The position numbers were made by a program, and so were the translations under genes. Below are positions 1-30,220 of a DNA stretch of 40,287 bases, piece by piece. The stretch is taken from NCBI GenBank assembly GCA_001773135.1, contig MEVX01000015.1:1-40287 (forward strand). The letters run 5' to 3'. A model generated the notes under the pieces. It was not told the DNA's origin. It worked only from the letters and a program-made list of their open reading frames with translations, and did not search any database. Position 1 is the first letter of the stretch, and each line of letters begins with the position of its first letter. The stretch is from a candidate division WWE3 bacterium RIFOXYB1_FULL_43_24. GTDB taxonomy: Bacteria; Patescibacteriota; WWE3; UBA101185; UBA10185.

Positions 1-16
1 TAGGAAGGAAAATACT

Positions 17-784
17 GTGAGCAAACTTCTAATAGGATATTTGTACAAAGAAGACCTGAATCTTTACGGAGACAATGGAAATGTTGAGGTTCTGCAGGCA
101 AGATGTTCCAGGAGAGATGTTGAGTGCGAAGTTATTTTAATTGATAAAGGAAAACTTACTTCCCACAATCGTTTGTCAGAGATAAATTTATTATTTATGG
201 GGGGAGGTCCTGATTCGTCTCAAAAATCCATCTACGGGGATTTTTTGGAAGAAAAAGAACCCTTTATCAGGGACTACGTCTCCTCAGGAAAGACAGGTCT
301 TTTTGTTTGCGGTTCATATCAGTTGATGGGCGATTATTACAGAGCTTCTGACGGCGAAGAATTAAAGGGCTTGGGTATTTTTAAAGCACACACAATTCAT
401 TTTGGTAAAAACAAACCAAGATGTATAGGTAATGTCCGGGCAACTCTGACGGGAAAAATTTCTTCCGATCCTGTTTTCAAAAATGTAAATTTTTTGGAAG
501 ATGGGATTGTGGGTTTTGAAAATCACGGGGGCAGGACATACTTGGATTCCGGCGCGGAACCTTTCGCGCGCGTTACTTATGGCCACGGTAACAATTCCGA
601 AGATGGCACCGAAGGAATCCTTTTGGGAAATTGCATCGGTACTTATTTTCACGGACCCCTACTTGCAAAAAATCCTCATTTGGCGGATTATCTAATTGCA
701 AAAGCTTTGAATGTACAGGAACTGCCTAAGTTGAACGATAGGTTCACAACCGCTTCTTACACTGCCTCAAAGAAGCTGAGGTAA
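17..784 (+). CDS. gatD: GatD-like / CobB-CobQ-type glutamine amidotransferase (putative lipid II isoglutaminyl synthase glutaminase subunit)
   Basis: GTG start; GLFVCGSYQLMGDYY (nucleophile Cys region), GFENHGGRTYL, YFHGPLLAKNPHLADYLI resemble the GatD/CobQ-like class I amidotransferase family. A partner MurT would lie upstream, outside the window. Confidence 0.85.
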   Translation: MSKLLIGYLYKEDLNLYGDNGNVEVLQARCSRRDVECEVILIDKGKLTSHNRLSEINLLFMGGGPDSSQKSIYGDFLEEKEPFIRDYVSSGKTGLFVCGSYQLMGDYYRASDGEELKGLGIFKAHTIHFGKNKPRCIGNVRATLTGKISSDPVFKNVNFLEDGIVGFENHGGRTYLDSGAEPFARVTYGHGNNSEDGTEGILLGNCIGTYFHGPLLAKNPHLADYLIAKALNVQELPKLNDRFTTASYTASKKLR

Positions 785-2002
785 ATGAAGAAGATAATTA
801 TCTCAAAAATATTGTTTTTTGCTTTGATAGCAGTTTTACCTGTAAATCTCGGTAAGCATTTTGAGTTTTCAGGTTCTTACGTTTACGGGAATCTTGTCGA
901 CTATCTGGTCCCCACTTTATATGTTCAAGACATCTTAGCTCTCGCTCTTTTAATTGCAATTATCTTTGAAAAAAAGAAAATAAGTTTGCACGGGCCGGTT
1001 AAAAAATTAGGTATTTTTTTAGGAATATTATTTTTGTCTTCTCTTGTTGCTTCGAGAACACTTCCTTCTTTGTGGTTTCTGTTCAGGGTATTTCTTTATT
1101 CTATGGCGGCAGTGTACGCGTATTTTTGGATAGATTTAAAAAAAGACGCCTACGTTTCGCAGAAGATTATAATAGCCCAATTTTTATTTATCAGTCTCTT
1201 GGCTATAACGCAGTTTTTTATAAAAGGCTCCGTTTTTGATAATTATCTTTTTTTAGGGGAGCAGCCTTATTCAACAAGTACCCCTCTAATTACAAAGGAG
1301 TTTTTCTTCGGTGCTACAATTCTTCCGCCGATGGGATTATTCCGCCATCCCAATATTTTGGCAGGGTACTTGGCAGTAATGCTTATTCTCACTATTTTTT
1401 GGATCCCGAGAAGCAAGCTAAGTTTAGTCTCTTTTTGTCTTGGATTAGTGGCGTTTATAATGACCTTTAGTTTATTTACATGGGGGGCTTTATTTCTAAC
1501 CTTGGTTTTATACAAAATCCTTCCCGACAAAAAACACATCATGTATTTTTATCTTTTTGTAACATCCCTGATATTGTTAATTCCGTTTTTTCCCTTCTCT
1601 TACGACAGCGCCTCTTTTTATAGAAGGGACAGCCTGTTAGGGGCAAGTTATCGTATAGCAGGGGAGTTTCCGGTGCTAGGTGTCGGGGCCAATAATTTCA
1701 CTTCGTACGTGGATGATTATCAAGTTACGGATGACATCCGGTTTACCCAGCCCGTGCACAACGTGTTCGCTTTAATACTCGCGGAGTCAGGTGTTTTTGC
1801 ATTCATTTTGTTTTTACTGATTTTTTTCGAAGCGTACGCAGGTGTATTTCGGAAAAAGGCAGTGCCTATGTTTCTTTGTATGTCCGTGCTTCTTCTGCTC
1901 ATGAGTTTTGACCACTATTTCTGGACAATGCACCAAACGCTACTCTTGCTTTTCCTTGTCATGGGCTTCTCGTGGAAGTATGCCTATGGACAAAGAAATT
2001 GA
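785..2002 (+). CDS. O-antigen ligase/polymerase-like multi-TM membrane protein
   Basis: Starts immediately after the gatD stop; many hydrophobic segments; GVGANNF...PVHNVFALILAESGVFAF resembles the Wzy_C/O-antigen ligase periplasmic-loop motif. Confidence 0.75.
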   Translation: MKKIIISKILFFALIAVLPVNLGKHFEFSGSYVYGNLVDYLVPTLYVQDILALALLIAIIFEKKKISLHGPVKKLGIFLGILFLSSLVASRTLPSLWFLFRVFLYSMAAVYAYFWIDLKKDAYVSQKIIIAQFLFISLLAITQFFIKGSVFDNYLFLGEQPYSTSTPLITKEFFFGATILPPMGLFRHPNILAGYLAVMLILTIFWIPRSKLSLVSFCLGLVAFIMTFSLFTWGALFLTLVLYKILPDKKHIMYFYLFVTSLILLIPFFPFSYDSASFYRRDSLLGASYRIAGEFPVLGVGANNFTSYVDDYQVTDDIRFTQPVHNVFALILAESGVFAFILFLLIFFEAYAGVFRKKAVPMFLCMSVLLLLMSFDHYFWTMHQTLLLLFLVMGFSWKYAYGQRN

Positions 2003-2023
2003 TATTTATATATAATTCTTTTA

Positions 2024-3337
2024 ATGCGCAATAAGCTAATACTGACTGCCCTAATAATCGCCATCCCATTTTTGCTTACAGCTTGTACTCTTCAAGACTT
2101 ACCTGTGGTTGGAAAATTCTTCAAAAGCGGCGGTATTTTGCCCGGAGGGCCCGTTACCTTAAACGTATGGGGACTGTGGGAAAATCCCGAGGTAATGCAA
2201 GAATTGATAGCCAAATATAAGGAAACACACCCTAACGTGGATATAAAGTACGACGACAGGTCCATTATGAAAGCTTCCCAGTACAAAGAGACTTTACTGG
2301 GGAGAATAGGCCAGCCTGATGTTGCTGATGTGGTATTAGTTCACAACACATGGGTGCCTACACTGAAAGGTGCACTTGCTCCCGCTCCTTCTAAAGTTTT
2401 AAGTGGCGATCAGTATGCAGAGAGGTACTATCCGGTAGCAAAAGATAGCGCTGTTTTCGACGGTGATGTGTATGCAGTTCCGATGTATTACGACGGAATA
2501 GCACTCGTTTATAACAAAAAACATTTCGAGGAGGAAGGACAGCTGTCGCCCCCGACTTCGTGGGAAGAATTCAGAAGACTTGCCTTTAATTTAACTAAGA
2601 GAGACGAAAAAGGCGTTGTTACAAGAGCAGGTGCTGCGATGGGTACTGCTAATAACATTGATTTCTTCTCCGATATTTTAGGGGTGTTTTTCGCGCAGGC
2701 AGGTGTAGAGGTTCCCGGAGGGATAGACAGTAAGCCTGCGAGAGATGCCCTGGCTTTCTACGTTCTTTTCAGCAAGTCAGACAAAGGTTGGGACGACACC
2801 TTTCCCGAAGCATCCGCAGCCTTTGGTCAGGAAAGAGTCTCAATGATTTTCGTGCCCAGCTGGAACCTGCTGGACATTTTAAAAGCACGTCCTAACTTGC
2901 AGATCGGCGTTGCTCCGGTTCCTCAAGCCACACTTGAAACTCCCGTCTCCTGGGCAAGCTTTTGGATGTACGCAGTTCCTGCGGTCAGCCCCAACAAAGA
3001 CGCGGCTTGGGAATTTATAAACTTTATCGCCCAGGAAGACTCACAATTGGCGATCTTCAACGCTGCTGCGAGGTACAGAACTTATGGAGCCCCGTTCAGT
3101 ATGGTTTCTTTAAGAGATCAGGTATCTACAGGCCCCTATGGATTATATCTAAAGCCTATATTGGAGACAGCAACCTACGCTAAAACCTCCCCGTTTGCGT
3201 CCCGCGCAGGTAACGATACTTACGTTAACGCCCTTAAGGCTGCTGTGAACTCGGTTCTGAACTCGAGAGAGGACATAAAAGTTGCAAGCGAGGTGGCTCT
3301 TAAAGAGGCGAAAGCACAGATAGTTACCCCCAGATAA
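2024..3337 (+). CDS. Extracellular solute-binding lipoprotein (ABC sugar-type family 1)
   Basis: Lipobox LLTAC; LNVWGLWENPEVMQELIAKYKETHPNVDIKYD and later YAVPMYYDGIALVYNKKHFEEEG typical of family 1 solute-binding proteins. -10 TATAAT lies 7 nt before ATG. Confidence 0.85.
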   Translation: MRNKLILTALIIAIPFLLTACTLQDLPVVGKFFKSGGILPGGPVTLNVWGLWENPEVMQELIAKYKETHPNVDIKYDDRSIMKASQYKETLLGRIGQPDVADVVLVHNTWVPTLKGALAPAPSKVLSGDQYAERYYPVAKDSAVFDGDVYAVPMYYDGIALVYNKKHFEEEGQLSPPTSWEEFRRLAFNLTKRDEKGVVTRAGAAMGTANNIDFFSDILGVFFAQAGVEVPGGIDSKPARDALAFYVLFSKSDKGWDDTFPEASAAFGQERVSMIFVPSWNLLDILKARPNLQIGVAPVPQATLETPVSWASFWMYAVPAVSPNKDAAWEFINFIAQEDSQLAIFNAAARYRTYGAPFSMVSLRDQVSTGPYGLYLKPILETATYAKTSPFASRAGNDTYVNALKAAVNSVLNSREDIKVASEVALKEAKAQIVTPR

Positions 3338-3384
3338 ACGCCACAGGAGTTTATATCCGCGCCTTTTTAAGGTATTCTTTCCCC

Positions 3385-4416
3385 ATGAAAATATTGGCCA
3401 TAGAGTCTTCCTGCGATGAGACAGCGTGCGCTATTGTTGAAGACGGTACAAAAGAACTGGTTTCGGTCGTAGCATCCTCAAAAGATTTTCACGAAAAAAC
3501 AGGCGGTGTTGTGCCTGAAGTTGCTTCAAGAAAACAGTTGGAATTTATATTCCCTGTATTGGAAAGGACAATTGAAGATTACTGCGAAAAGATCGGCTGT
3601 TCCGATAAGGAAGAAGCTGTTGCTTCAATTGATGCTTTAGCCGTAACGGTAGGGCCGGGATTAGTAGGCTCTCTGGTTGTTGGGGTAACTGCTGCTAAAA
3701 CTTTATCGATGGCATGGAAAAAACCTCTCATTCCGGTAAATCATCTGGTAGGACACATTTACGCAAATTTCCTCGGGGATCCTTCGGAAATAACTTTTCC
3801 GGCGGTATGCTTGTTGGTAAGCGGAGGACACACAGATCTGGTTTTAATGAAAGGCCACGGAGATCTTGCTTATCTTGGGGGAACCGTGGACGATGCAGCA
3901 GGAGAGTGTTTCGACAAAGTTGCAAGAATGATGGGTATCTCACGGTATCTTGGGGGTGCTGTGCTCTCGAAAAGAGCTTTGGAATGTAAGAACCCTGGCG
4001 CGGCCAAGTTGCTTCCCCGCCCAATGCTAGATCAGGACAACTATGACTTTTCTTTTTCCGGTTTGAAAACAGCGGTGAAGAGGTACCTGGAGGGAGCCCC
4101 GCGGGATATTTCCTGTACCGCGCGGGAATTTGAAGAAGCGGTGGTGGATGTACTCACGGTTAAAACTATAAAGGCGGTCAATCACTTTGGAGTTAAAAGT
4201 TTGTTGGTAGGGGGAGGGGTTTCTGCAAATACCCGGCTCAGGGAAAGTCTTAAAAATGCCACAGAAGCTGCGGGGGTAAAACTGTTTATTCCGGAACCAA
4301 GGTTATGCACAGATAACGCAGTCTATATTGCGTCAGCTGCTTACTTCAACAACGTCACAAAAGATTTAAGTGAAATAAGGGCTGAACCGTCGCTGAATAT
4401 AATGGGACTAACTTAA
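3385..4416 (+). CDS. tsaD: tRNA N6-adenosine threonylcarbamoyltransferase TsaD
   Basis: MKILAIESSCDETACAIVEDG start, NHLVGHIYANFL, SGGHTDLVL, GGGVSANTRLRE motifs. Confidence 0.97.
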   Translation: MKILAIESSCDETACAIVEDGTKELVSVVASSKDFHEKTGGVVPEVASRKQLEFIFPVLERTIEDYCEKIGCSDKEEAVASIDALAVTVGPGLVGSLVVGVTAAKTLSMAWKKPLIPVNHLVGHIYANFLGDPSEITFPAVCLLVSGGHTDLVLMKGHGDLAYLGGTVDDAAGECFDKVARMMGISRYLGGAVLSKRALECKNPGAAKLLPRPMLDQDNYDFSFSGLKTAVKRYLEGAPRDISCTAREFEEAVVDVLTVKTIKAVNHFGVKSLLVGGGVSANTRLRESLKNATEAAGVKLFIPEPRLCTDNAVYIASAAYFNNVTKDLSEIRAEPSLNIMGLT

Positions 4417-5660
4417 GACAGTTTCTGCAGTAGTTCTTCCAGAGTCAATAAGTCGGATTTTTCTTCGCCCCTCTTTTTAAGCTCTATCTTCGTACCGTTT
4501 TTCTTTGAAACTACAGCTCTGTAGGGAATACCCACAAGATCGGCGTCAGAGAACTTAGTGCCTGCAGTGGTATCCTCGCGGTCATCGAAGAGAACTTCAA
4601 TTTTCTTCTGAAGAAGTGTGTCGTATACTTTTTCGGCAATCTCGGCTGTTGCTTCGTCTTCGAGATTTAAGCCCACGAGGTGCAGTTTTGCAGGAGCGAC
4701 GCTCTCCGGCCACACAAGTCCTTTGTCGTCCCCGAACAGTTCCACTATGGTTGCCATAAGCCTTGCAGGCCCTATTCCATAGGCGCCCATAATCACAGGT
4801 TTTCTCTTTCCTTCTTCGTCTGTAAAGAAAAGTCCGAGAGGTTCGGAAAATCTGGTCTTCTGTTTGAAGATATTACCGACCTCAATCGCCCTTACTTCTT
4901 CTAAATCTTCTTTTTTAACACCGAGGTCGTTTAGTACTTCGTCGGTCAAAACCTCTTTGTTAATCCCGATTTTTTTCTTTCGGTCGAGATAGATGGTGTC
5001 TTCTCCCGATTCGCACACGGTTTGAAATTCGTGGCTATACTTGCTGAAAGTACCGCCGCTAGCGAAGGTGAGGTACGTTTGTTCACCGATTCCCGCGCGG
5101 GAAAATATCTTGAAATATGCCTCAGTAGCTTTCCCGTAAAAGGCATCGAGCTCTTCTTCGTTTGAATTAAAGGAGTAGAGGTCTTTCATTAAAAATTCGC
5201 GGGTTCTTAGCAGCCCGTTTTTTGCCCTTACTTCGTTTCTGAATTTGGTCTGAATTTGAAAAGGGTACGACGGGAGGTCTTTGTAGGAGTTAATTTGTCT
5301 GGACATTAGCGCCGCTAAAGGCTCTTCGTGTGTGGTTCCCAGCCCTATTTCGGTGTTGTTCTTTAGCTTTGTTTTGAACCAGATGTCATAAACATCGTCT
5401 CCCCACCTTCCGGATTTTTTCCAGGAATCGGGGTTTTGCAAAGCGGTCATCTGGAGTTCCTGGCCCCCGACAGCTACAATTTCTTCCCGGATAATTTCAA
5501 CTATTTTGTTCAAAACCCTTAATCCTAATGGAAGAAAAGCGTAGACTCCGGCCATTTCTTTATTGATGAAGCCGGCTCTGGTTAAAAGCTGGGCGTTTTT
5601 ACTTATTTCATCTTTTGGGGCTTCTTTTAATGTTTTGCCGATTGTTTGGCTGTAACGCAT
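4413..5660 (-). CDS. proS: Prolyl-tRNA synthetase, short form apparently lacking the INS editing domain
   Basis: RYSQTIGKTLKEAPKDEISKNAQLLTRAGFINKEMAGVYAFLPLGLRVLNKI, GLGTTHEEPLAAL, MGAYGIGPARLMATIVE. ORF track start is 5678; the start is revised to the ATG at 5660 because TATAAT (5667-5672, minus strand) sits 6 nt upstream and overlaps the longer ORF. Confidence 0.92.
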   Translation of the reverse strand: MRYSQTIGKTLKEAPKDEISKNAQLLTRAGFINKEMAGVYAFLPLGLRVLNKIVEIIREEIVAVGGQELQMTALQNPDSWKKSGRWGDDVYDIWFKTKLKNNTEIGLGTTHEEPLAALMSRQINSYKDLPSYPFQIQTKFRNEVRAKNGLLRTREFLMKDLYSFNSNEEELDAFYGKATEAYFKIFSRAGIGEQTYLTFASGGTFSKYSHEFQTVCESGEDTIYLDRKKKIGINKEVLTDEVLNDLGVKKEDLEEVRAIEVGNIFKQKTRFSEPLGLFFTDEEGKRKPVIMGAYGIGPARLMATIVELFGDDKGLVWPESVAPAKLHLVGLNLEDEATAEIAEKVYDTLLQKKIEVLFDDREDTTAGTKFSDADLVGIPYRAVVSKKNGTKIELKKRGEEKSDLLTLEELLQKLS

Positions 5661-26472: not shown

Positions 26473-26863
26473 GGGGATGCACAAGGATTTGATTGAGTCC
26501 AATTTCGTGCAGTTGCAAGCAGGGAAGCTGAACCCTTAAATTTAGCAAAACCATAAATGCCGATAAAGAAGCATTTGTAGGCGTGCCAGCAATGGCCGCC
26601 GTAGCAGCTTAATTTATTAACGCTGTGGATCCCGTTGCTTTTGCCCGGAAGGGCTTTCGGGGTCTAATAAATCCGGGAAAAGGTCATATCCGTGGTAGCC
26701 CTACGGATACACCAAGGATGAAAGATCCGAAGATTTTGGCTTGCGTTAGGGCAGAAAAGGTACTTCAAGCACCCGGCTCTATCTAAGATAAGCTTGGATA
26801 CGCTTGTAGAGGCTGTATGAAAAGTTCTCAAGACGGGGGTTCGATTCCCCCCATCTCCACCAG
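26473..26863 (+). ncRNA. ssrA: tmRNA
   Basis: 5' GGGGATG pairs with 3' CATCTCC-A-CCA including the G3-U70 wobble; T-arm GGGGGTTCGATTCCCCC; internal tag ORF GCC GAT AAA GAA GCA TTT GTA GGC GTG CCA GCA ATG GCC GCC GTA GCA GCT TAA (26559-26612; ADKEAFVGVPAMAAVAA); next to smpB. Confidence 0.95.
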
Positions 26864-26864
26864 A

Positions 26865-26901
26865 AAATTTTTAAGGCTGCTTAATGCAGCCGTAAAATTT
26901 T
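26865..26901 (+). terminator. Intrinsic terminator after tmRNA
   Basis: A-tract, GGCTGC-TTAAT-GCAGCC hairpin, AAAATTTT tract. Confidence 0.8.
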
Positions 26902-27011
26902 GTAGGAGTTACGTAGGAGTCGAATGCCACAGCGAACGAAGGTGAGCGAGGCGGGGTCGACGGGCGTGTCAGCAGACACGAACCGGTGACCGATTCCCCC
27001 CATCTCCACCA
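26902..27011 (+). repeat. tRNA-3'-end echo element, locus A (downstream of tmRNA)
   Basis: Core 26922-26990 homologous to locus B core, ending in an exact 21-bp copy (26991-27011) of tmRNA 3' end 26843-26863, CGATTCCCCCCATCTCCACCA. Confidence 0.8.
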
Positions 27012-27049
27012 AAAAATATTGAGGTCACCGTGAGGTGGCCATATTTTTT
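27012..27049 (+). terminator. Second terminator, directly after the duplicated tmRNA 3' end
   Basis: AAAAATATTGA-GGTCACC-GTGA-GGTGGCC-ATATTTTTT. Confidence 0.75.
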
Positions 27050-27151
27050 GTAGAAGTCGAAAGGTGCCGATTACTCCTTTATTTTAGTTTCGATACCAAG
27101 AATCTTCTTCCGTCTGTAATCACTATTTCTGTGTAAACGGCAGAACCTTTT

Positions 27152-28345
27152 TCATTTTCTTAACCATGCCGGATTTTTCAGAAATATAAACCCCGTTCCC
27201 AGCATCACAAGTGTGATTAACCACTCAAGATCGGCGAGGGAGTACCAAGGCAGCACTATGAGAACAAGTAACAAACCGGTGGCTAATAACCAGCGTTTGT
27301 TGTTTAACAAAGTACCTACAATTAATGCAAGAGGGGCTAAATGTACAAGCAGGTCCGTGTGCATTGTGTGCACATTCAATAACGGTAAAAACAAGCAAAC
27401 TAGTCCGAAGAGATGTTCCTGGGAGAAGGATGCCCTTTTTTTATAAATCACTAGCAACGTAAAAACGTTAAGTGCTACAACAGCTCCAATTGCCGCCCAG
27501 GTATTTTGGGCTATTCCCAGCCATTTTTGAACAGAGTAGATAAAGGCGGTTATGTTCGTGTTATTTATAAGGTCAGTTCCGTGGTTCTCGTTCTCACTGC
27601 TAAATAGGTATGGCACGTAGGTTTTGATAAAACTAGTTCCAAAAAGTGCGGTGTTCATAGCTACTAAGAGCAACATAGTAGCTATGAAATGTAGGGCAAA
27701 GGAAACCAGCTGTTTTCTATTTTTTGTTAAGAGAAAAGCAAAGGGCACAAACAGTAGAAAAGTCGGTTTTAGGAAAAGAAATCCCGTAAGCACTCCTGCG
27801 AAACCGGGACGGTTGTGTTTTAAAGCCGTAAAAGCTGAGGCTATTATCAGCAATAACACTCCGTTCGGGTGCCCCCCGATTAATGTCATCCAAAAAGCCA
27901 GGAAAAACGTTGCTATTGTGCTGATCACACAAGTTTTTACAAAGGATCCGCTAAGTAAATAAATAGCAGTAACGATACATACCGAGTTGATAAGGACGAC
28001 AATCCAGAAAGATTTCACAGGGTCTTCTATAGGAAGGAGAGAATACAGCACCGCCGTAATAGGAGGGGTTCTAAAAGCCAATATTCCTGTAACGAGTGTG
28101 GCAGGAACTGTGTTTGAAATGGAACGTTGATAACTTCTTTGCGTTTCGTAGTCGTACAGGTGAGTTATCTTTCCTTCCTGCACAATCCTTGCTCCGGTGA
28201 GGTACATCAGAAAATCAGACGGTTGCTCGGGGTCTTGTAATCTGACATCCGAAAACTGTGCCAGTAGGAAATATACAATACCCCAGGCGACCAAAGGAAA
28301 AATTAAAATATAGAGCACCCAAGGCTTGTTTTTGATTGTCCCCAC
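27152..28345 (-). CDS. Polytopic glycosyltransferase family 87-like (DUF2029) membrane protein
   Basis: DFLMYLTGARIVQEGKITHLYDYETQRSYQ plus many TMs. Track start 28363; a GTG at 28345 lies 6 nt after TATAAT and is proposed instead. Confidence 0.75.
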   Translation of the reverse strand: MGTIKNKPWVLYILIFPLVAWGIVYFLLAQFSDVRLQDPEQPSDFLMYLTGARIVQEGKITHLYDYETQRSYQRSISNTVPATLVTGILAFRTPPITAVLYSLLPIEDPVKSFWIVVLINSVCIVTAIYLLSGSFVKTCVISTIATFFLAFWMTLIGGHPNGVLLLIIASAFTALKHNRPGFAGVLTGFLFLKPTFLLFVPFAFLLTKNRKQLVSFALHFIATMLLLVAMNTALFGTSFIKTYVPYLFSSENENHGTDLINNTNITAFIYSVQKWLGIAQNTWAAIGAVVALNVFTLLVIYKKRASFSQEHLFGLVCLFLPLLNVHTMHTDLLVHLAPLALIVGTLLNNKRWLLATGLLLVLIVLPWYSLADLEWLITLVMLGTGFIFLKNPAWLRK

Positions 28346-28503
28346 CTTAGGATTATAGCTCATTCTATTGTCGCTAGAGAAAGGGGGGTTTCAAAATGCC
28401 GGGGAAGCCCTATTATTACTACAGGGTCCAGATATATATAAGCTATGGGGTATAGGCGTCCAAAGAGTTGATCTGGCAATATAATATCTATTGTGGATAA
28501 CAT

Positions 28504-29232
28504 ATGGAAAACATTCTGAAATACTTATTTCCTCCAAAATGCATATTTTGCGGCGTTCAGGGGGATATTTTTTGCGAAACGTGCCTGGCCGAGTGTTCTT
28601 TGCTAACCTCCCAATATTGCCTGGTTTGTGATTTACCTTCAGAAAACGGGAACACCCACGAGAGGTGTCTAAAAAGGTTCGGGGGATTGGCTCCGGCCCG
28701 GCTCCTCTGTGCTTACTCTTACTCGGGGAAAGTCAGGGATTGTATTAAATTTTCCAAATATGGGGCAAGACAATTTCTGAGTCTAAGGAAGCTATGTATG
28801 GAGGCTACTTCTGTTTGTGCCGAGATATGGGGAAGTGTGGCCGCAGATTTATGTTTACCCATACCGTCCAGTCCGAAGAAGCTTTCATATAGGGGATTTA
28901 ATCAGGCTAACATGGTAGCGGAGGAAGTCTCGAGAAGTTTCAAAATCCCTTTAAGGAAAGATCTTTTGGTGAGAAGTAGAAATACCGAGGCTCAGCATAC
29001 TCAAAGTAGGGAAGGTAGGCGTGAAAATGTTAAGGGTTCGTTTGCTGTGACTGACAGGCGTGAACTTGCGGGCAGAAAAATTTTACTGGTTGACGACATA
29101 AGCACAACCGGAGCCACTTTTTTGGAATCAGCTAGGGTTTTAAACGAAGCGGGGGCGGCGGAAGTTCAGTGTTTTGCCCTAAGTAAACGCGAAAAAGTTT
29201 GTTATAATAGTCCGGCGTATGCTCGAGCATAG
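28504..29232 (+). CDS. comF: ComF family phosphoribosyltransferase-like protein
   Basis: LFPPKCIFCGVQGDIFCETCLAEC zinc finger; RGFNQANMVAEEVSRSFKIPL; GRKILLVDDISTTGATFLESARVLNEAGA PRPP loop. Confidence 0.92.
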   Translation: MENILKYLFPPKCIFCGVQGDIFCETCLAECSLLTSQYCLVCDLPSENGNTHERCLKRFGGLAPARLLCAYSYSGKVRDCIKFSKYGARQFLSLRKLCMEATSVCAEIWGSVAADLCLPIPSSPKKLSYRGFNQANMVAEEVSRSFKIPLRKDLLVRSRNTEAQHTQSREGRRENVKGSFAVTDRRELAGRKILLVDDISTTGATFLESARVLNEAGAAEVQCFALSKREKVCYNSPAYARA

Positions 29233-29239
29233 TGGCCGC

Positions 29240-29327
29240 GGAGGGTTGGCAGAGCGGTAATGCAGCGGCTTGCTAAGCCGTGACGGTTAATTGCCGTCCA
29301 CAGGTTCGAATCCTGTACCCTCCGCCA
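29240..29327 (+). tRNA. tRNA-Ser(GCT)
   Basis: Acceptor GGAGGGT/ACCCTCC, long variable arm, loop TTGCTAA, T-arm CAGGTTCGAATCCTG, encoded CCA. Confidence 0.95.
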
Positions 29328-29403
29328 GAAATTAAACTTTCCTAACAGTAGCAGAATACCCAATTTTATTGCGTTCTATCGGTAAAAAAACTATTATTGA
29401 ACT

Positions 29404-29985
29404 ATGCAAATACCCTACTCAAAAATATTGGACTTTTTCGGAATATCTAACGAAAAACCTTCCGATACTAAAAGACCTGACGGTTTCGACCCTCAAACTC
29501 TTGGGCCGAAAGAAGTGTATGTTGTGTGGGACTCTGTGGTTAAGGCAGAAATAAAGGAGATGAACAAGAGATTTTCGAGGACCTTTATAATTATCGCCGT
29601 CGTAATAGCTTTACTGCTGGTAGTTATGCAGGAATTTGGGTTAATTTTTGTTGTAGCAAGCTTAATCTTTTTTGTACTCTCGTTAAACAGACTTCCTGAA
29701 CACACTATTCACGTCGAGGTCTCGAGCCACGGTATTAAGTATGGTGACACTATGTACTATTGGCACGAACTCAAACAGTTTTTCTTTAAAGAGGTCGCCG
29801 GTGCGGAGGTAATGATGGTTGACACCTACACATATCTCCCGGGCAGGTTGTTTTTTAGCTTTAATGAAAGTGACAAGTTTAAAATTAAGGAGTCCTTGGA
29901 CAAGCACATAAATTTTGTTTCTGTGGCTCCGATGTCTTTTCTCGATAAGTTTTTCGAGAACGTTAAAAGCAAATTTAATATATAA
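29404..29985 (+). CDS. Hypothetical two-TM membrane protein
   Basis: 193 aa; FIIIAVVIALLLVVMQEFGLIFVVASLIFFVLSL hairpin followed by a beta-rich cytoplasmic region. Confidence 0.65.
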   Translation: MQIPYSKILDFFGISNEKPSDTKRPDGFDPQTLGPKEVYVVWDSVVKAEIKEMNKRFSRTFIIIAVVIALLLVVMQEFGLIFVVASLIFFVLSLNRLPEHTIHVEVSSHGIKYGDTMYYWHELKQFFFKEVAGAEVMMVDTYTYLPGRLFFSFNESDKFKIKESLDKHINFVSVAPMSFLDKFFENVKSKFNI

Positions 29986-30000
29986 TCACCCTGTAAATAG

Positions 30001-30076
30001 GCACCCGTAGTTCAGAGGATAGAACGCAGCGTTGCGGACGCTGAAGTCGGGGGTTCGAGTCCCTCCGGGTGCGCCA
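30001..30076 (+). tRNA. tRNA-Arg(GCG)
   Basis: Acceptor GCACCCG/CGGGTGC, anticodon stem CAGCG/CGCTG with loop TTGCGGA, T-arm GGGGGTTCGAGTCCCTC, encoded CCA. Confidence 0.9.
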
Positions 30077-30220
30077 TGTGAGCGGCGGTCATCGGAGATG
30101 GCCGACGGTCACATGGTACTAATGGGACGAGAATGGCGCAGGCACGACGGTGCCGAGCCGGGGCCGAGCGGATCGCCAGCAGGCGAGAACGCGTGACCGA
30201 GTCCCTCCGGGTGCGCCATG
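30077..30220 (+). repeat. tRNA-3'-end echo element, locus B (downstream of tRNA-Arg)
   Basis: Large hairpin 30077-30113, core 30131-30197 homologous to locus A, then exact 23-bp copy (30198-30220) of 30056-30078, CGAGTCCCTCCGGGTGCGCCATG. Confidence 0.85.

What the first reader, a model, noticed from the sequence alone, without database searches (positions are those of the whole stretch)
26922..30197. Homologous, structure-conserving core in loci A and B with compensatory base changes
Core A (26922-26990) and core B (30131-30197) align over ~69 columns at about 70% identity by hand, with two gaps. Many differences preserve pairing. Hairpin P3: A CGTGTC-AGCA-GACACG vs B TCGCC-AGCA-GGCGA (three double changes, identical AGCA loop); outer P3: A CGG/CCG vs B GCG/CGC (two double changes); P2 closing: A GCC/GGC vs B GGC/GCC (one double change). 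Predicted unpaired stretches are conserved: GGGGYCGA between hairpins and GTGACCGA just before the tRNA copy. This is the signature of selection on a fold, i.e. a functional RNA or hairpin-forming ssDNA.
Basis: seen in the sequence. Interest (0 to 1): 0.88.

Follow-up and report, generated by a model that had tools for sequence, protein, structure and literature searches.

The report
Mobile DNA hairpins in tRNA genes
Small folded DNA pieces of about 65 bases have copied themselves behind many tRNA genes in tiny uncultivated bacteria (Patescibacteria), each time rebuilding the end of the tRNA gene and carrying a short complementary copy of it, a kind of mobile element that no family I tested matches.

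Summary
Cores A and B are 71% identical (7 SD above shuffles) and belong to a family of 12 units in this WWE3-like Patescibacteria genome. Every unit whose tRNA could be found follows a tRNA or tmRNA gene. Unit layout: tRNA 3' end, usually a hairpin (H1), a 9-nt "guide" strand, a ~65-nt three-way-junction core, then an exact second copy of the tRNA 3' end (C56 to CCA). The core fold covaries at 25 of 26 pairs over 105 distinct sequences. A sister genome has precise empty sites at both genes of the finding, so the units are insertions. Near-identical cores sit behind different tRNAs in one genome, while guide and repeat match each local tRNA; the guide is the reverse complement of T-arm nt 54-62, including 4 of 4 rare tRNAs with altered nt 55. 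Some lineages also carry an inverted copy of the acceptor end and terminator. I found the family only in Patescibacteria (46 of 380 genomes); it is not in Rfam. Low G-T content favours action as folded DNA. The mobilising enzyme is unknown. Best reading: a new class of small mobile DNA hairpin targeting the tRNA T-loop. Mobility is well supported; the mechanism is inferred.

The parts
26473..26862 (+). tmRNA gene, host of unit A
   Evidence: ARAGORN and Rfam RF00023, 124.5 bits
26842..26862 (+). proximal 3' end of tmRNA (C56-A76), first direct-repeat copy
   Evidence: identical to 26991-27011
26863..26901 (+). hairpin H1 of unit A, terminator-like; its outer arms resemble the native tmRNA terminator seen in the empty site of G002
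   Evidence: inverted repeat I1; G002 empty-site sequence
26916..26924 (+). guide A (GGAGTCGAA), complement of tmRNA T-arm nt 54-62 with one mismatch that is a G-T wobble in P1
26925..26990 (+). core A, three-way junction. P2 26926-26928/26950-26952 with inner hairpin 26932-26947; P3 26955-26958/26988-26991, 26961-26963/26983-26985, 26965-26970/26975-26980; loop AGCA 26971-26974
   Evidence: folding, covariation, CM match 107.2 bits
26991..27011 (+). distal copy of tmRNA 3' end; its first bases pair with the guide (P1); the native tail follows it
   Evidence: direct repeat D1; empty site in G002
30001..30076 (+). tRNA-Arg(GCG) gene, host of unit B
   Evidence: ARAGORN and Rfam
30056..30076 (+). 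proximal 3' end of tRNA-Arg (C56-A76), first direct-repeat copy
   Evidence: identical to 30198-30218
30074..30116 (+). hairpin H1 of unit B, stem starting in the CCA end
   Evidence: inverted repeat I1, 20-nt arms
30124..30133 (+). guide B (GGGACGAGAA), complement of T-arm nt 54-63 except GA for nt 57-58
30134..30197 (+). core B, three-way junction (P2 30135-30137/30157-30159 with inner hairpin 30141-30154; P3 with AGCA loop)
   Evidence: CM match 80.3 bits
30198..30218 (+). distal copy of tRNA-Arg 3' end; the native tail follows it
   Evidence: direct repeat D1; empty site in G002

Best explanation
The two loci are copies of one small mobile DNA element family that inserts into the T-loop region of tRNA and tmRNA genes of Patescibacteria. 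The mobile part is a ~65-nt core that folds, on the tRNA-sense strand, into a three-way junction. SHOWN: copies lie behind many different tRNAs; precise empty sites exist; each copy is flanked by a direct repeat of the tRNA 3' end from C56; the strand just 5' of the core is the reverse complement of nt 54-62 of the local tRNA; near-identical cores carry different, locally matching flanks. INFERRED: the core acts as a folded DNA cap or recombination site. At insertion it is joined to the lower strand at nt 54 and to the upper strand at nt 56, so both strands of the outer stem are copied from the target. The duplicated segment (tRNA 3' end, tail, terminator) turns back at the terminator palindrome, giving the order direct copy, inverted copy, core, direct copy; the tRNA stays intact and the inverted part then decays. 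An enzyme supplied in trans is assumed and was not identified.
For: 12 copies in the own genome. Exact empty sites at the tmRNA and tRNA-Arg(GCG) orthologues in G002, with the native tail matching the sequence after the distal copy. Most of 74 units have the repeat starting at C56 and ending at the tRNA 3' end. Guide matches its own T-arm 15 SD above shuffled pairings, 0/1000; per position 54, 55 and 56 are 66/66. 4 of 4 units at tRNAs with G or C at nt 55 carry the complementary base, although the distal copy starts at 56. Cores of tmRNA and tRNA-Arg(UCG), and of Ser/Ile/Leu in G012, are 95-98% identical with different flanks. Inverted acceptor copy in non-WWE3 lineages: 5.44 vs 4.46, SD 0.157, 0/500; intact case in L157. 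Tail past CCA also duplicated, 0/2000. G-T pairs 2.1% vs 6.2% in tRNAs.
Against: No mobilising enzyme was found; the tyrosine recombinases present occur in carriers and non-carriers alike and look like host Xer genes. In WWE3, the window's own group, the inverted acceptor copy is not detectable, so the inverted-duplication step rests on other lineages. No excised or single-stranded form can be seen in assemblies. The low G-T content could partly reflect sequence composition. A ~100-180 bp element is small for ordinary double-stranded recombination.
Confidence: 0.6

Rival explanations
1. A functional structured RNA made from the tRNA trailer, for example one that pairs through the guide with the tRNA T-arm and affects folding or processing of the tRNA.
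For: Strong covariation and conserved unpaired bases on the sense strand; guide complementary to nt 54-62 of the tRNA; the sense strand folds better than the antisense strand.
Against: Low G-T content; present or absent at orthologous tRNAs of sister genomes; present in only 46 of 380 genomes; many copies per genome behind unrelated tRNAs; hairpin H1, terminator-like in a number of units, lies between tRNA and core; no Rfam match. No expression data were available.
Confidence: 0.15
2. An integron-like system: the core is a folded single-strand recombination site (works like attC), the outer stem is the recombinase box, the tRNA T-loop is the receiving site, and a Xer-type tyrosine recombinase inserts single-stranded units.
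For: P1 and the base of P3 can stack as two half-sites with P2 protruding at the junction; the strand across the junction is continuous only on one side; tandem arrays occur; identity from the T-loop to the tRNA 3' end is the pattern that I know from tRNA-targeting tyrosine integrases (own knowledge).
Against: No IntI match over its cut-off; no recombinase whose presence follows the element; one carrier, G068, has only one Xer-like gene; the attC R-box consensus GTTRRRY is not seen; does not by itself explain how the guide is re-made at each new tRNA.
Confidence: 0.25
3. The guide is element-borne and selects the target, as in IS200/IS605 single-strand transposases or IS110 bridge RNAs.
For: A short strand complementary to the insertion site next to a hairpin, covarying with the target.
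Against: No Y1 transposase in the own genome and no IS110 transposase in 5 carriers; cores nearly identical while guides differ at several places means guides change faster than a selected targeting part should.
Confidence: 0.1
4. Replication template switching at palindromes, with repair of imperfect palindromes, spreads and homogenises the copies without any dedicated enzyme.
For: Inverted-triplication-like layout in several lineages; a hairpin-capped intermediate is known to give inverted triplications in yeast (PMC4689423); mosaic units such as C12b in the own genome.
Against: Does not explain why one conserved ~65-nt core is placed at nt 54/56 of so many tRNAs across a phylum.
Confidence: 0.15

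Closest known systems
Integron attC sites and gene cassettes
   Same: Folded single-strand hairpin with conserved structure over sequence, outer strands complementary to each other, cassette-like tandem arrays
   Different: Three-way junction with conserved unpaired bases, tRNA T-loop target, no cassette gene, no integron integrase, no GTTRRRY core site
tRNA-targeting integrative elements (T-loop sublocation)
   Same: Repeat running from the T-loop to the tRNA 3' end that keeps the tRNA intact
   Different: Only ~100-180 bp, no genes, a folded core, plus a complementary copy of the T-arm
REP elements / IS200-IS605 ends (Y1 transposases)
   Same: Small mobile hairpins with a short complementary strand near the cleavage site
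   Different: No GTAG tag, no Y1 transposase in the own genome, tRNA-specific
Casposon/Cas1 insertion at tRNA 3' ends
   Same: Direct repeat of a tRNA 3' end around an insert
   Different: No Cas1 in five carriers; the insert is a tiny hairpin with a target-derived inverted strand
Inverted triplications (ODIRA, tandem inversion duplication)
   Same: Direct-inverted-direct order of a short segment around palindromes, hairpin-capped intermediate
   Different: Here a conserved foreign core sits at one junction and the site is fixed at the T-loop

Membership tests
Integron attC / gene cassette | Integron integrase IntI in the genome | tested here: not met
   Both own recombinases score far below the cut-offs of TIGR02249 and NF011946 and resemble XerC/D
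Integron attC / gene cassette | R box GTTRRRY / RYYYAAC and single hairpin | tested here: not met
   Core is a three-way junction; junction reads GTGAC|CGA
Integron attC / gene cassette | Recombination of a folded single strand | not testable with these tools
   Needs biochemistry
Tyrosine-integrase element in a tRNA gene | Identity block from T-loop to tRNA 3' end, tRNA kept intact | tested here: met
   Repeat C56-A76 in most of 74 units, empty sites
Tyrosine-integrase element in a tRNA gene | Element-borne or element-correlated integrase | tested here: not met
   No gene in the unit; PF00589 counts do not separate carriers from non-carriers
REP / IS200-IS605 (Y1) | Y1 transposase (PF01797) in the genome | tested here: not met
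   None in the own genome, controls positive
IS110 with bridge RNA | DEDD transposase (PF01548) | tested here: not met
   0 of 5 carrier genomes, controls positive
Casposon / Cas1 insertion | Cas1 (PF01867) | tested here: not met
   0 of 5 carrier genomes, controls positive
Retroelement / RT-mobilised element | Reverse transcriptase in carriers | tested here: not met
   No PF00078 in carriers G000, G001, G010, G012, G022, G068
Known structured RNA (Rfam 15) | Match at gathering score | tested here: not met
   Only tRNA and tmRNA found in the window and 12 loci; permissive scans of units from two loci found nothing credible

The most novel reading that the evidence does not exclude
A previously undescribed class of mobile DNA: a hairpin cap of ~65 nt, without genes, that is joined onto a break in the T-loop of tRNA genes and writes a complementary copy of its target beside itself, so its outer stem is re-made from every new host gene and it can spread to any tRNA without harming it.
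Probability: 0.4. Interest if true: 0.9.

Novelty: categorically new. Interest (0 to 1): 0.78.

Why it matters
It would add a kind of mobile element that carries no gene, is defined by fold rather than sequence, uses the one part common to all tRNA genes as its landing place and takes its targeting strand from the target. It is common in Patescibacteria (12% of a phylum-wide sample), a large group with few tools, and it explains partial tRNA 3' ends and arrays behind their tRNA genes. It also gives a caution: strong compensatory changes in a hairpin can come from copying of a target, not only from selection on RNA structure.

Tried and rejected
1) Gene cassettes between cores: the roughly 1-kb spacing in G026:C68 is simply units behind separate tRNAs; larger gaps hold independent integrative elements (large serine recombinases, DGR) inserted in the tRNA. 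2) Dedicated tyrosine recombinase: the second one sits at a conserved host locus. 3) Reverse transcription of tRNA: no RT in several carriers; CCA-less tRNA genes gave no sign of added CCA. 4) A full inverted copy of the tRNA end as a general rule: weak overall in the first set, absent in WWE3, clear in other lineages. 5) Viral carriage: 80 of the 120 viral contigs pattern hits were tested with the covariance model and none matched. 6) Non-Patescibacteria hits of the DNA pattern were GC-rich chance matches that failed the model. 8) Literature searches found no description of this element in the library; subscription papers and preprints are not held.

Full report
WHAT WAS CLAIMED AND WHAT IS THERE. 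The two cores are real. They align over 69 columns at 71% identity with a score of 74; 5000 dinucleotide shuffles gave a mean of 42.6, SD 4.4 and maximum of 65. Core A lies behind the tmRNA gene and core B behind tRNA-Arg(GCG). Each is followed by an exact 21-nt copy of the end of its gene, C56 to the CCA.

A FAMILY, NOT A PAIR. A DNA search of the own genome gave further copies, and a covariance model built from 12 aligned copies finds 12 in the genome. Nine of the twelve lie behind an identified gene: tmRNA, Arg(GCG), Arg(UCG), Arg(CCU), Gly(CCC) twice in tandem, Pro(GGG), Leu(GAG) and Ala(GGC). Two lie behind remnants of a Gln-type 3' end, and one is at a contig end. The common fold is a three-way junction: P1, P2 with an inner hairpin often containing GA/GA opposite each other, and P3 with an AGCA loop. 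In the own-genome set 15 of 26 pairs change on both sides, 95.1% of cells pair, 0/500 shuffles. In 105 distinct sequences it is 25 of 26 pairs and 92.7%, against 32-45% when partners are slid.

DISTRIBUTION. 15 of 96 relatives carry it, G026 with 21 copies, and 46 of 380 genomes across the phylum. A pattern scan of named genomes returned WWE3, Berkelbacteria, Paceibacterota, Kaiserbacteria, Saccharibacteria, WS2 and other Patescibacteria; the other bacteria hit by the pattern do not match the model beyond chance. The 80 viral contigs tested with the model did not match. The neighbours that share the window's genus include WWE3 records (CP006914, LCBB, MEWJ; contig names and lengths), so the window is very probably from a WWE3 bacterium (inference).

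IT IS AN INSERTION. In sister genome G002 both genes of the finding are empty. After the tmRNA, and after tRNA-Arg(GCG), G002 has directly the tail that in the window follows the distal copy. G001 and G003 are filled at tRNA-Arg. The insertion is therefore exactly one 3'-end copy plus H1 plus guide plus core.

IT MOVES BETWEEN tRNAs, AND BOTH STRANDS OF P1 ARE RE-MADE. In G000 the cores behind tmRNA, Arg(UCG) and Gly are 97% identical; in G012 those behind Ser, Ile and Leu are 95-98% identical; yet the guide and the distal copy match each local gene. Over 74 units the guide fits its own T-arm far better than shuffled pairings (5.99 vs 4.21, SD 0.12, 0/1000). Position by position it is the reverse complement of nt 54-62: 54, 55 and 56 match in 66/66, 59-62 in 58-64, and 57/58 in about two thirds, the rest being mostly a GA variant that could form sheared G-A pairs. 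The four units at tRNAs with an unusual base at nt 55 all carry its complement. Since the distal copy starts at C56, P1 pairing cannot explain that; copying from the gene, or pairing with the gene itself, can.

LAYOUT OF YOUNG COPIES. In a WS2 genome (L157) a tRNA-Gly unit still repeats the whole tRNA end plus terminator on both sides, and between terminator and guide lies an inverted copy of the acceptor end. Similar inverted acceptor copies occur in Berkelbacteria, Paceibacterota and others. They are significant outside WWE3 (5.44 vs 4.46, SD 0.157, 0/500) and absent inside WWE3 (4.05 vs 4.09). The tail past the CCA is also duplicated and decayed (0/2000 shuffles). The order direct copy, terminator, inverted copy, core, direct copy resembles an inverted triplication, for which a hairpin-capped intermediate has been shown in yeast (PMC4689423).

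DNA OR RNA. G-T pairs make up 2.1-2.3% of core pairs against 6.2% of stem pairs in 108 tRNAs of the same loci. The sense strand folds better than the antisense strand as DNA. H1 looks like a terminator in a number of units, though I did not measure this reliably. There is no Rfam match. I read this as a folded DNA site on the sense strand; expression was not testable.

ENZYME. Absent: Y1 transposase in the own genome; RT in carriers G000, G001, G010, G012, G022 and G068; IS110 transposase and Cas1 in five carriers. Tyrosine recombinases are host Xer-like genes found in carriers and non-carriers. One serine recombinase in the own genome is broken. The cuts implied by the junctions, upper strand 55/56 and lower strand 53/54, would leave a 2-nt 3' overhang; this is an inference from the sequences.

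OTHER ELEMENTS USE THE SAME PLACE. Large serine recombinase elements sit in tRNA-Pro of G010 and tRNA-His of G026, and a diversity-generating retroelement array uses the extra 3'-end copies at tRNA-Gly of G026. They are independent of the core unit.

VERDICT. Mobility, target site and target-derived flanks are well supported (about 0.9 by my estimate). Action as folded DNA is likely (about 0.7). The cap mechanism is an inference (about 0.4). No known family passes its membership tests. The literature library holds no description that I could find, but it lacks subscription papers and preprints.

Noticed in passing
window 27012-27080: After the distal tmRNA copy a second terminator-like hairpin is followed by GTAGAAGTCGAAAGGTGCCGATTACTCC, which looks like a second unit with its core deleted.
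   Followed up: partly
L055 (G026:C2) 1-4715: tRNA-Gly(CCC) locus with three tandem integrative elements, one holding a diversity-generating retroelement (RT, bAvd-like, target-like ORFs). Elements 2 and 3 follow a 3'-end copy supplied by a core unit.
   Followed up: partly
L066 10829-15205 and L057 1540-9120: 4.2-kb and 7.3-kb elements with large serine recombinases inserted in tRNA-Pro and tRNA-His; the recombinase reading frame ends in or at the tRNA gene.
   Followed up: partly
G000:C12:26921-28400 (L010): Two units with Gln-type 3'-end copies but only CAGCCA remnants upstream, sharing P3 but differing in P2 and H1; looks like mosaic units separated from their tRNA by integrative elements.
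   Followed up: partly
L090, L139, L172, L173, L348, L359, L353: Units with an extra hairpin before the guide (loop often CTGGGAG or CTGC, then GYGT); several of them (L090, L139, L172, L173) also have an insertion inside the distal copy after CGA. A distinct sub-family.
   Followed up: no
L054, L055, L056, L063, L070: Sub-family with a longer P3 (units of 105-122 nt); the model was built on the short form and probably undercounts these.
   Followed up: no
L054 1003-1618 (G026 tRNA-Tyr): Array of three units of which the first and third are identical over the CM match, including the 61 nt before the core; suggests recent duplication or recombination within arrays.
   Followed up: no
G000:C18:13315-13707 (L331): Serine recombinase gene with an in-frame TGA, on the contig that also starts with a unit.
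   Followed up: no
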